A stretch of 64,000 bases of DNA from Amniculibacterium aquaticum (GTDB taxonomy: Bacteria; Bacteroidota; Bacteroidia; Flavobacteriales; Weeksellaceae). The stretch lies in assembly GCF_003852705.1 (NCBI RefSeq), contig NZ_REFA01000011.1:1-64000 (forward strand). Reading direction: 5' to 3'. Shown piece by piece: positions 47,980-63,788 of this stretch. The stretch's first letter is position 1. The number at the start of each line of letters is the position of its first letter. The translations under genes were made by a program, and so were the position numbers. The notes beneath the pieces were generated by a model. The model was not told where the DNA came from and made no database searches. It saw nothing but the letters and a program-made list of their open reading frames with translations.

Positions 47980-50016
47980 ATGCAGACCGATCAAAAAAAA
48001 CAAATACTTTTAGTAGGAAATCCCAATGTTGGCAAATCTACCGTTTTCAACCAATTGTGTAACCGAAAACAAAAAACCGGAAACTATGCCGGAGTTACTG
48101 TTGCTGCCCACTCTGGAGACTATATCTATCAAGACCAAAAGGTAGAAATTGTTGACCTTCCTGGTTCGTACAGCATCTATCCAAGCTCTGAAGACGAAGC
48201 CATTTTTTCTAAATATCTGATAGACGAAGCCCATAAGTACAGCGGCGTCATCTATGTTTTGGAAGCACTAAGCATCAAAAGAGGACTTCTTTTGTTCCGA
48301 CAAATTCAGGATTTGGGAATTCCGGTTCTTATATTATTGAACCAAATAGATCAAGCTGAAAAAAGAGGCATACACATCGATATTCCTCTTTTAGAAGAAG
48401 AATTAGGAACTAAAGTTATCCCGACCAATGCCAAAGAAGGGATCGGCATTGATGAGCTTAGAAATTCCATTTACAACAACAAGTTCAGGACTTCCAACCA
48501 CATATCGTTCCAAATTCCTACCGAACACAGAGGCTTGGTTTTCAAAATATTATCCGATTCTAAAGAAGAAAATCAATATAAAATCTGGACGCTTTTGGCA
48601 TCCGAAACCTATATTGCAAAATTGGAAACCGTAAGCGAACAATTGAGGGATAACGAAGAGCTAAAGTGCTTGGTTCCCAAAAGATTGCAAACGCAAGAAA
48701 CCATAAGGAGGTACTTGTCCATCGACAAAACCATCGCCAAAGTCATCAATAAAAAACCTCAGTTCAAGGAATTGCTCACGGAAAAACTGGACAAAGTTTT
48801 GGTTCATAAATTTTGGGGCTATTTATTTTTCATCTTCGTCATGCTGATGATTTTCCAAATGGTCTATTATTTGGCAGCCTATCCTATGGATTGGATTTCT
48901 AATTTTTTCCTTTGGTTTTCCGAGTTTTCAGCAGAGACACTTCCTGCTGGGCCTATCAATTCTCTAATATCTAACGGAATTATTCCTGGGATTGGTGGGA
49001 TTGTCGTTTTCGCCCCACAAATTGGGATACTTTTGTATATGCTCTATCTTTTGGAAGATTCCGGCTATATGGCGAGGGTGGTTTTCCTTATGGACCGATT
49101 GCTCAGGCCTTTCGGGTTGAGTGGTAAAAGCATTGTTCCGCTTATTTCAGGTACGGCTTGTGCCATTCCGGCCATCATGTCCACCAGAAATATTGAGAAT
49201 GTTAAAGAACGGTTGATCACCATCTTGGTAACTCCTTTTATGACTTGTTCTGCTCGATTGCCGGTGTACAGCATCATTATAGAATTGGTGATACCGGACA
49301 AAACTTTTATCGGTATTTCTTACAAAGCCATCGCTCTTTTGGCGATGTATTTGGTCGGATTTTTCATGGCGTTGCTGTCGTCCTTTGTTTTGAAAAAAAT
49401 TATTAAAAATGTTGGTAAATCCTTTTTGGTAATGGATTTGCCGACTTATAAAAAGCCTCTTTTTGGTTACGATTTCAAGATTGTATTGCAGAAAGTTTGG
49501 GAATTTATCACAGGTGCTGGGAAAATTATTTTCCTTGTTAGCATCATCATTTGGGTTTTAAGCTATTTTGGACCCGCTCAAAAATCCGGTTCGTTTATGG
49601 ATGCCGATGTCAAGCTGAAACAATCCTATTTGGCAAAAATGGGACATCAGATAGAGCCCGTCATTGCACCGTTGGGATACGATTGGAAAATGGGAGTGGG
49701 GATCATCACCAGTTTTGCAGCTCGAGAAGTTTTTGTAGGAACAATGGCAACGCTTTATAGTTTGGACGATGAAGCTCCGGAAGGCACCATCATCGAAAAA
49801 ATGAGAAACGATGTGAATGAAAATGGCGAGAAGGTCTTTTCTTTTGCAACGGGTATTTCTATATTGATGTATTATGCTTTTGCCATGCAATGCATCTCTA
49901 CCATTGCCGTGGTGTACAGAGAGACAAAATCTCTGAAGTGGACTTTGATACAGTTGGTGTCCATGTCCGGTTTGGCCTATATCGTTTCGCTGGTGGTTTA
50001 TCAGCTGTTTAAATAA
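47980..50016 (+). CDS. feoB: Ferrous iron transporter FeoB
   Basis: FeoB is the Fe(II) transporter of the inner membrane with an N-terminal G domain. The 678-residue protein has G1 GNPNVGKST (13-21), G3 DLPGSYS and G4 NQID, then a helical linker. The membrane domain carries the gate motif SGTACAIPAI and later TCSARLPVY, both with the cysteines conserved in FeoB. The length is near the short end for the family (E. coli about 770). It lies between feoA and a Cys-rich companion. Confidence 0.96.
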   Translation: MQTDQKKQILLVGNPNVGKSTVFNQLCNRKQKTGNYAGVTVAAHSGDYIYQDQKVEIVDLPGSYSIYPSSEDEAIFSKYLIDEAHKYSGVIYVLEALSIKRGLLLFRQIQDLGIPVLILLNQIDQAEKRGIHIDIPLLEEELGTKVIPTNAKEGIGIDELRNSIYNNKFRTSNHISFQIPTEHRGLVFKILSDSKEENQYKIWTLLASETYIAKLETVSEQLRDNEELKCLVPKRLQTQETIRRYLSIDKTIAKVINKKPQFKELLTEKLDKVLVHKFWGYLFFIFVMLMIFQMVYYLAAYPMDWISNFFLWFSEFSAETLPAGPINSLISNGIIPGIGGIVVFAPQIGILLYMLYLLEDSGYMARVVFLMDRLLRPFGLSGKSIVPLISGTACAIPAIMSTRNIENVKERLITILVTPFMTCSARLPVYSIIIELVIPDKTFIGISYKAIALLAMYLVGFFMALLSSFVLKKIIKNVGKSFLVMDLPTYKKPLFGYDFKIVLQKVWEFITGAGKIIFLVSIIIWVLSYFGPAQKSGSFMDADVKLKQSYLAKMGHQIEPVIAPLGYDWKMGVGIITSFAAREVFVGTMATLYSLDDEAPEGTIIEKMRNDVNENGEKVFSFATGISILMYYAFAMQCISTIAVVYRETKSLKWTLIQLVSMSGLAYIVSLVVYQLFK

Positions 50017-61386: not shown

Positions 61387-61818
61387 TTATGAGCACGCAA
61401 TTTTTGCCACTCTATTTTGATGTCTACCACCTTCAAAATCGGTATTTAAAAAGGTTTGAACAATTTCTAATGCCAATTCTTTAGCAATAAATCGTGCTGG
61501 AAGAGCTATCATATTGCAATTGTTATGTTGTCTGGAAAGTGTTGCCAAATCGGGCATCCAGCAAAGTGCACATCTGATTTTTTCGTGTTTATTGGCCGTA
61601 AGTTGTACGCCTTGTCCGCTTCCACAAATAAGAATTCCGAACTCGTTATCACCATTTTCTACTGAGCTTGCAGCAGGATGTACAAAGTCTGGATAATCTA
61701 CAGAATCCAATGATTTTGTTCCAAAATCTTGAATTTCATAATGATTTTTTAATTGGCTTATTAAATATTCTTTGTATTCAAAACCTGCATGATCACAAGC
61801 GATGGCTATTTTTTTCAT
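61387..61818 (-). CDS. rpiB: Ribose-5-phosphate isomerase B
   Basis: RpiB interconverts ribose-5-phosphate and ribulose-5-phosphate in the pentose phosphate pathway. The 143-residue protein starts MKKIAIACDHAGFEYK and has GTKSLDSVDYPDF and the anion-binding ICGSGQGVQLTANK, all of the RpiB/LacAB family. The ATG at 61818 gives the standard N-terminus; seven extra residues from an upstream ATG are rejected. A -7 element is at 61844-61837. Confidence 0.94.
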   Translation of the reverse strand: MKKIAIACDHAGFEYKEYLISQLKNHYEIQDFGTKSLDSVDYPDFVHPAASSVENGDNEFGILICGSGQGVQLTANKHEKIRCALCWMPDLATLSRQHNNCNMIALPARFIAKELALEIVQTFLNTDFEGGRHQNRVAKIACS

Positions 61819-61836
61819 TTTTACTTTATTTATGTA

Positions 61837-61844
61837 CAAATTTA
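61837..61844 (-). promoter_or_regulatory. rpiB promoter -7 element
   Basis: TAAATTTG on the minus strand, 16 nt before the ATG at 61818. Confidence 0.45.
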
Positions 61845-61860
61845 GTCTAAAATTTACAAA

Positions 61861-62551
61861 TCATAATTTATGCGGATATGAAACTTATGTTAAATTCAAT
61901 ATCCAAGCATCCTATATTATATTAATCATGCTAATTTCTAAGTGTCCATCGTGCTAAATACTCACATTTTAATACTAAATAACTGATTATCAACTTAATC
62001 AAATTTTATCCACAAAATATTAATTTATCATTAAAAATTAAAGCATTGAATATTAAATCATTAAACATAATACTAAAATTACAAGTAATTGATAAATAGT
62101 AAATTAACAAAATACTCATAATCGTATGGAAAACGCGGGAAATATTTGTGGAAAAGAATTAAAAAAATGTTCTTTTAAATCTAAATTAAAAAGTGTAATG
62201 AAAAAATTTTATCGAATATTAATTCACATTTTCTAAATTTTTACTTTCAACAAATCACCATCTTTTCCATGAAAACTTAATTAAGAAAAGTAAAAAATAA
62301 AATTTATTAACAATTGTTAAAAAGTACTATATTTCATTGTTATTCAATATTTTACAATGTGAATAAGAAAGTGAATAAGACTCTAAAAGATGGGTATAAT
62401 AAAATAAAAAAACTTATCCTCATAATTCACAATACTCAACATATAACAACAGTATATATTTTTATAAAAGAAAAAAAATGATGATAATATGAGTAAATGA
62501 ATCTTGTGGAAATTTATGCTCAGCAATTTCTTTTTTCAATTTTTGAAATTG
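61861..62551. other. Candidate replication origin (oriC) with DnaA-box cluster
   Basis: This gene-free AT-rich stretch between divergent rpiB and pgk holds three exact TTWTNCACA DnaA boxes: TTATCCACA at 62006-62014 (+), TTTTCCACA at 62155-62147 (-) and TTATTCACA at 62366-62358 (-). One-mismatch sites lie at 62220-62228, 62370-62378, 62414-62422, 62423-62431 and 62505-62513. No coding region is seen. Genes run leftward on the left for about 7 kb and rightward on the right, as expected for replication forks leaving this point. dnaA is not in the window, which does not exclude an origin in Bacteroidota. Confidence 0.6.
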
Positions 62552-62559
62552 TAAATTTG
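62552..62559 (+). promoter_or_regulatory. pgk promoter -7 element
   Basis: TAAATTTG lies 38 nt before the pgk ATG at 62598. Confidence 0.4.
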
Positions 62560-62597
62560 TAGAACAAAAAATACGAAAAACTTTCTAATTAATATAA

Positions 62598-63788
62598 ATG
62601 AAAACAATTAACGATTTCAATTTCAAAGACAAAAAAACTCTTGTCAGAGTTGATTTTAATGTACCTCAAGATTCTAATCTTAATGTTACGGACAATACCC
62701 GAATTGTAGCTGCTAAGCCAACCATCGAGAAAATTTTAAATGATGGTGGTTCTGTCATATTATTGTCGCACCTGGGACGCCCAAAAGGAAAAGAAAGTAA
62801 TGAATTGTCTTTGGTGCATATTGTTCCTGAAATTGAGAAAGTTTTAGGAAGGAAAATAATCTTTTCTAACGACTGTATTCAAGAAGATGCTCATGAAAAA
62901 GCATCAAAATTGAATCCTGGAGAAGTATTGCTTCTGGAAAATTTAAGATTTCATAATGAAGAAGAACAAGGCGATTCCAAATTTGCCGAGTCCCTTTCAA
63001 AACTTGGAGATGCGTATGTAAATGATGCGTTTGGTACGGCACATAGAGCTCATGCCTCTACCTCGGTTATTGCAAATTATTTTCCTCAAACTAAATTTTT
63101 CGGTTTATTAATGGCTAAAGAATTACAAGCCATAGATAAAGTCTTAAATACGGGTGAGAAACCTGTAACTGCAATAATTGGTGGATCTAAAGTTTCTTCA
63201 AAAATTACCATCATAGAGAATATCTTACCTGCTGTTGACAATCTGATTATCGGAGGTGGTATGGCTTTTACATTCGTTAAAGCTCTTGGTGGACATATTG
63301 GAAATTCTCTTGTTGAAGAAGATAAAATGCAATTGGCAATAGATATTCTAGAGAAAGCAAAACAACATCATGTACAGGTATGTTTACCTGTGGATGCTGT
63401 AATTGCTGATGCATTCTCTAACGATGCCAACATCAAAGTATGTGATATATACGAAATTCCTGAAGGGTGGATGGGATTGGATGTCGGTCCAAAATCCAAT
63501 GTTATTTTCCATGATGTATTGTTAAATTCTAAAACCATACTTTGGAATGGACCTGCTGGAGTTTTTGAATTATCTAATTTTGCTGCTGGAACTGTTGCAT
63601 TAGGAGATGGTATTGCAGAAGCAACTAAGTTGGGAGCATTTTCTTTAGTTGGTGGAGGAGACAGTGTTGCTTTTGTAAAACAACATGGGTATGAAAATAA
63701 AGTTTCTTATGTTTCGACCGGTGGAGGTGCAATGTTGGAAAGTTTAGAAGGTTTAGAACTTCCAGGTGTTGCAGCGATCAACAAATAA
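62598..63788 (+). CDS. pgk: Phosphoglycerate kinase
   Basis: PGK transfers phosphate from 1,3-bisphosphoglycerate to ADP in glycolysis. The 396-residue protein shows RVDFNVPQD near the N-terminus, [25 protein letters not shown], the hinge-region [24 protein letters not shown] and the nucleotide site [10 protein letters not shown]. The length is standard. It is a single gene with its own leader and terminator, facing away from the candidate origin. Confidence 0.97.

What the first reader, a model, noticed from the sequence alone, without database searches (positions are those of the whole stretch)
61861..62551. Candidate chromosomal replication origin between rpiB and pgk, away from dnaA
Seen: a gene-free, roughly 80% AT, 0.7-kb stretch with three exact TTWTNCACA DnaA boxes (62006, 62147, 62358) and five further one-mismatch boxes. 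At about 20% GC I would expect about 0.1 exact boxes by chance in this length on both strands (rough estimate). Genes point away on both sides. Hand counts also fit: plus-strand coding in pgk 63541-63660 has 36 G and 13 C, whereas plus-strand feoB 49141-49260 has 24 G and 27 C. That pgk stretch is glycine-rich, so the count is only suggestive. Known: origins in Bacteroidota are not always next to dnaA.
Basis: partly seen in the sequence, partly recalled or inferred. Interest (0 to 1): 0.75.

Follow-up and report, generated by a model that had tools for sequence, protein, structure and literature searches.

The report
Chromosome replication origin between rpiB and pgk
The AT-rich gap between two sugar-metabolism genes is very probably where this bacterium starts copying its chromosome, at a site far from the dnaA gene and kept in the same place across its bacterial family; origins of this kind are already known and predicted.

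Summary
The 758-bp rpiB-pgk spacer (61840-62597) is 20% GC, contains the most AT-rich 700 bp of its 87-kb contig, and holds three exact DnaA boxes (0.19 expected) and ten one-mismatch boxes. (1) In 79 of 80 related loci rpiB lies upstream of pgk and diverges from it, and the 700 bp before pgk hold on average 2.15 exact boxes against 0.20 in shuffles. Box 62147-62155 is exact in 59 of 81 aligned sequences. (2) In 43 complete genomes of the family, all 165 16S genes point away from an origin placed at pgk; only 43 of 165 do so for dnaA. (3) GC skew sampled in two complete genomes puts the origin 8-12 kb from pgk and rejects dnaA, which lies 21-49% of the chromosome away. No replication experiment could be run, skew cannot separate sites within about 10 kb, and some Kaistella-group spacers hold no exact box. 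An oriC away from dnaA has already been predicted in Elizabethkingia, probably at the same spacer. This is a new member of a known kind, useful mainly because genomes here are often rotated to dnaA.

The parts
61840..62597 (.). Intergenic spacer between rpiB and pgk: proposed oriC, 758 bp, 20% GC
   Evidence: gene-free, contains the most AT-rich 700 bp of the contig
62006..62014 (+). DnaA box TTATCCACA (exact)
   Evidence: also exact in the two nearest relatives L003 and L007
62147..62155 (-). DnaA box TTTTCCACA (exact), the most conserved box; in most Chryseobacterium a second box TTATTCACA lies 10 bp away on the same strand
   Evidence: exact in 59 of 81 and within one mismatch in 71 of 81 aligned sequences
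62304..62312 (+). Degenerate DnaA box TTATTAACA (one mismatch); the family consensus at these columns is TTATCCACA
   Evidence: at most one mismatch in 60 of 81
62358..62366 (-). DnaA box TTATTCACA (exact), with TTATTCACT at 62370-62378 forming a tandem pair 12 bp apart
   Evidence: at most one mismatch in 51 of 81
62411..62441 (+). Conserved block with weak box-like words (TTATCCTCA); role unknown
   Evidence: among the most conserved stretches of the spacer
62014..62140 (.). Candidate unwinding stretch (very low duplex stability, between boxes 62006 and 62147)
   Evidence: 60-bp window at 62017 is among the least stable of the contig; assignment is inference
62550..62557 (+). Conserved TAAATTTG, fits the Bacteroidota promoter element TAnnTTTG; probable pgk promoter
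   Evidence: most conserved stretch of the spacer; promoter consensus from own knowledge
61387..61839 (-). rpiB, ribose-5-phosphate isomerase B (flanking gene)
62598..63788 (+). pgk, phosphoglycerate kinase (flanking gene)

Best explanation
The rpiB-pgk spacer is the chromosomal replication origin (oriC). DnaA, made from a gene a fifth to a half of the chromosome away, would bind the conserved box at 62147 and its neighbours, open the very AT-rich DNA beside the boxes, and load the helicase; two forks then leave in opposite directions, toward rnr and toward pgk and mnmG. Shown here: the box cluster, its conservation, the AT-rich low-stability DNA, and that strand composition and rRNA gene direction across the family switch at this locus. 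Inferred: DnaA binding, the exact unwinding site and the initiation event itself.
For: Cluster beyond chance. It is the only cluster of 3 or more exact boxes within 500 bp in the 87-kb contig, and the matching spacer is the only one in 220 kb around pgk of complete genome G145; none in about 0.8 Mb of samples elsewhere in two complete genomes, and no box in 3.5 kb at the window genome's own dnaA. rpiB-pgk divergence and boxes conserved in relatives: mean 2.15 exact boxes against 0.20 in shuffles and 0.36 in reversed sequence. Box 62147 conserved in 71 of 81. 165 of 165 16S genes in 43 complete genomes of 13 genera are co-oriented with forks leaving pgk; an origin at dnaA gives 43 of 165, random origins average 83 with a maximum of 113 in 2000 trials. 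Skew fit: origin at 1,695,000 in G023 (pgk 1,703,109) and 3,395,000 in G145 (pgk 3,382,639), dnaA scores below zero. mnmG (gidA), a usual origin neighbour (own knowledge), ends about 1.6 kb beyond pgk.
Against: Skew and rRNA direction resolve only to about 10-40 kb, and local skew minima in G145 and G022 lie about 10-11 kb downstream of pgk, although no box cluster is there in G145 or in the window's contig. Five of 80 relatives have no exact box in the 700 bp and only a weak excess of one-mismatch boxes; complete genomes G022 and G144 have none, and G023 has a single exact box. No DnaA-trio run was found in the window's spacer. The window's own genome is in 74 contigs, so its own global skew was not tested. 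No replication data.
Confidence: 0.9

Rival explanations
1. The origin lies in this neighbourhood but at another spacer, for example about 10 kb past pgk where the minus-strand gene block containing mnmG ends; the rpiB-pgk boxes would be a secondary DnaA site.
For: Local skew minima in G145 (3,394,016) and G022 (1,449,094) lie 10-11 kb downstream of pgk, and the best fit in G023 is also shifted 8 kb that way. The own contig has almost equal local minima near 62.5 and 72.5 kb.
Against: No other cluster of exact boxes exists in the 87-kb contig or in 220 kb around G145 pgk. The shift fits the 9-kb block of minus-strand genes beyond pgk, which biases local skew. The spacer at the end of that block is only about 60 bp long.
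Confidence: 0.07
2. The boxes are DnaA-dependent regulatory or titration sites (like datA or DARS of E. coli, or DnaA control of pgk or rpiB), not the origin.
For: Other DnaA-box pairs exist in the genome, some intergenic (C2:126265/126287 and C5:48547/48618).
Against: Those are pairs, not clusters, in the sequence read. Strand bias and rRNA direction of 43 genomes switch at pgk, which a titration site would not explain.
Confidence: 0.02
3. Chance: an AT-rich promoter spacer with a few box-like words.
For: TTWTNCACA is only mildly enriched over the whole window (18 against 12.1).
Against: P about 0.0005 for the cluster, conservation of boxes over 80 relatives, and coincidence with the skew and rRNA switch.
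Confidence: 0.01

Closest known systems
Ori-Finder-predicted oriC of Elizabethkingia meningoseptica G4076 (PMC8994065)
   Same: A spacer of 649 bp with three DnaA boxes and AT-rich unwinding elements, about 1.87 Mb from dnaA, in a genus I place in the same family from own knowledge.
   Different: The passages read give coordinates, not flanking genes, so identity with the rpiB-pgk spacer is an inference. It is consistent with G052, an unnamed 4.4-Mb complete genome of the family whose rpiB-pgk spacer is about 670 bp with three exact boxes and whose dnaA is 49% of the chromosome away.
E. coli oriC (gidA/mnmG-mioC)
   Same: DnaA boxes plus AT-rich DNA, not at dnaA, with mnmG close by.
   Different: mnmG is separated from the spacer by pgk and two other genes here; Dam, SeqA, IHF and Fis sites were not tested.
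Bacillus subtilis type oriC beside dnaA (with DnaA-trios)
   Same: DnaA boxes and AT-rich unwinding DNA.
   Different: Here dnaA is a fifth to half of the chromosome away, and no DnaA-trio run was found.

Membership tests
Bacterial chromosomal oriC (DnaA-dependent) | Cluster of DnaA boxes beyond chance in a non-coding stretch | tested here: met
Bacterial chromosomal oriC (DnaA-dependent) | AT-rich, easily unwound DNA next to the boxes | tested here: met
   lowest-GC 700-bp window of the contig; low-stability 60-bp windows at 62017, 62152, 62278 and 62442
Bacterial chromosomal oriC (DnaA-dependent) | Located at the switch of GC skew | tested here: met
   in two complete relatives, to about 10 kb; not testable in the window's own fragmented assembly
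Bacterial chromosomal oriC (DnaA-dependent) | Highly expressed genes (rRNA) oriented away from it on both arms | tested here: met
   165 of 165 16S genes in 43 complete genomes
Bacterial chromosomal oriC (DnaA-dependent) | Boxes conserved in relatives at the same junction | tested here: met
   weak in some Kaistella-group genomes
oriC with the basal unwinding system of B. subtilis type | DnaA-trio element | tested here: not met
   no run of three or more TA[GA] in the spacer; a feature of some origins, not required for oriC in general
Bacterial chromosomal oriC (DnaA-dependent) | DnaA binding, unwinding and initiation in cells | not testable with these tools
   needs experiment
oriC adjacent to dnaA | dnaA within a few kb | tested here: not met
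   dnaA on another contig here; 21-49% of the chromosome away in 43 complete genomes

The most novel reading that the evidence does not exclude
The rpiB-pgk spacer is a family-wide fixed origin with its own box layout (a conserved, often tandem pair of boxes in the same orientation, 10 bp apart, next to a low-stability stretch without DnaA-trios), while dnaA has drifted freely; in some Kaistella-group genomes the standard boxes have nearly vanished at the same locus, which would mean a changed initiator specificity or a short-range origin move.
Probability: 0.2. Interest if true: 0.5.

Novelty: new member of a known kind. Interest (0 to 1): 0.4.

Why it matters
Many complete genomes of this family are rotated so that dnaA is base 1, a point that is not the origin and can lie nearer the terminus. 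Origin-based work (growth-rate estimates from peak-to-trough coverage, replichore comparison, shuttle-vector design) should use the rpiB-pgk spacer. The conservation of the locus while dnaA moves also offers a clean system to ask what holds an origin in place.

Tried and rejected
Local skew of the window's 87-kb contig alone is not decisive: its minimum is at 17.6 kb, with local minima near 62.5 and 72.5 kb. Other box pairs in the listed part of the genome were examined: two overlap ORFs and two are intergenic but only pairs. dnaA as origin was rejected by rRNA direction, skew and lack of boxes. An RNA gene in the spacer: one sub-threshold Rfam match (E 0.26, below the gathering score), taken as chance. 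DnaA-trios: none. Extension to the whole order: rRNA direction still fits an origin in the same broad region as pgk (31 of 32), but two complete genomes of another family show no box cluster within 50 kb of pgk, so the exact site does not carry over.

Full report
The window holds a divergent arrangement, rnr-rpiB on the minus strand and pgk on the plus strand, with a 758-bp spacer (61840-62597) of 20% GC between them. In dinucleotide shuffles of the 700 bp before pgk, three or more exact boxes occur with a frequency of 0.0005, and 13 boxes with at most one mismatch never occur in 2000 shuffles (mean 3.9). The spacer contains the lowest-GC 700 bp of the 87-kb contig and several of its least stable 60-bp windows. 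It holds no Rfam family above threshold.

Conservation. A scan with Pgk brought 80 related loci, mostly Chryseobacterium and Kaistella. rpiB lies upstream and divergent in 79 (the other ends at a contig edge); in eight of them about 2.2 kb separate the two genes and the boxes stay on the pgk side. The 700 bp before pgk hold 2.15 exact boxes on average against 0.20 in shuffles and 0.36 when the sequence is reversed; 60 of 80 relatives have two or more and five have none. In an alignment of 81 spacers, box 62147 is exact in 59 and within one mismatch in 71; it is among the most conserved stretches, beside the TAAATTTG element before pgk, which fits a Bacteroidota promoter. In many Chryseobacterium it forms a same-strand pair of boxes 10 bp apart.

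Position on the chromosome. The window's own assembly is in 74 contigs, so position was tested in 43 complete genomes of the family (13 genera). dnaA lies 21-49% of the chromosome from pgk in all of them. All 165 16S genes point away from an origin at pgk with a terminus opposite; an origin at dnaA fits only 43, and random origins fit 83 on average and at most 113 in 2000 trials. Moving the origin 50 kb to either side of pgk already costs one to four genes. Genome lengths were partly rounded values, which affects only the far side of each circle. In two complete genomes sampled at 20 stretches each, a two-arm fit of GC skew puts the origin at 1,695,000 (pgk 1,703,109; G023) and 3,395,000 (pgk 3,382,639; G145), and scores dnaA below zero.

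Uniqueness. In the 87-kb contig, in 220 kb around G145 pgk, and in about 0.8 Mb of samples across G023 and G145, the only cluster of three or more exact boxes within 500 bp is the rpiB-pgk spacer; the 3.5 kb at the window genome's dnaA has none. Four other box pairs in the listed part of the genome were read; two overlap ORFs and two are intergenic pairs without further boxes. About a quarter of the genome-wide TTWTCCACA places were not listed, so a second cluster elsewhere is not formally excluded.

Mechanism. Most likely DnaA binds the box cluster, with 62147 as the anchor, opens the neighbouring AT-rich DNA and loads the helicase for two forks. Binding and unwinding are inference; the candidate unwinding stretch 62014-62140 rests on composition only. 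No DnaA-trio run was found.

Doubts. Local skew minima in G145 and G022 lie 10-11 kb past pgk; a 9-kb block of minus-strand genes there (with mnmG) can explain this, and no box cluster sits there in G145 or the window's contig. Some Kaistella-group genomes keep the locus and the rRNA switch but have few or no exact boxes. In two complete genomes of another family of the order, no box cluster lies within 50 kb of pgk although rRNA direction still fits its broad neighbourhood.

Known work. An oriC of 649 bp with three DnaA boxes, about 1.87 Mb from dnaA, was predicted in Elizabethkingia meningoseptica with Ori-Finder (PMC8994065). That is probably the same spacer, but I could not check its flanking genes. 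Origins away from dnaA are acknowledged in general (PMC10225481). I found no paper in the held library naming the rpiB-pgk junction, which does not exclude entries in DoriC or in subscription papers. The finding is therefore a well-supported new member of a known kind.

Noticed in passing
complete genomes of the family, e.g. G023, G145, G154: Many assemblies are rotated so that dnaA is near base 1, although the origin inferred here is 21-49% of the chromosome away.
   Followed up: yes
L195:1766-1796 (G000:C2:126265-126295): Two perfect TTATCCACA boxes as an inverted pair 22 bp apart in an AT-rich intergenic stretch; possible DnaA titration or regulatory site.
   Followed up: partly
L198:1548-1627 (G000:C5:48547-48626): A second intergenic inverted pair of perfect TTATCCACA boxes, 71 bp apart.
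   Followed up: partly
14 complete genomes of outer families in the order: 31 of 32 16S genes still fit an origin on the pgk side of the chromosome, but no DnaA-box cluster lies within 50 kb of pgk in G221 or G256: neighbourhood shared, exact site not.
   Followed up: partly
G022, G144, L014, L025, L043, L045, L066: Kaistella-group spacers at the same locus with no exact DnaA box; the initiator's binding sequence or the exact site may have changed.
   Followed up: partly
L113:5381-7243 (window contig about 65.4-67.2 kb): mnmG (gidA), a frequent origin neighbour in other bacteria, ends about 1.6 kb past pgk.
   Followed up: yes
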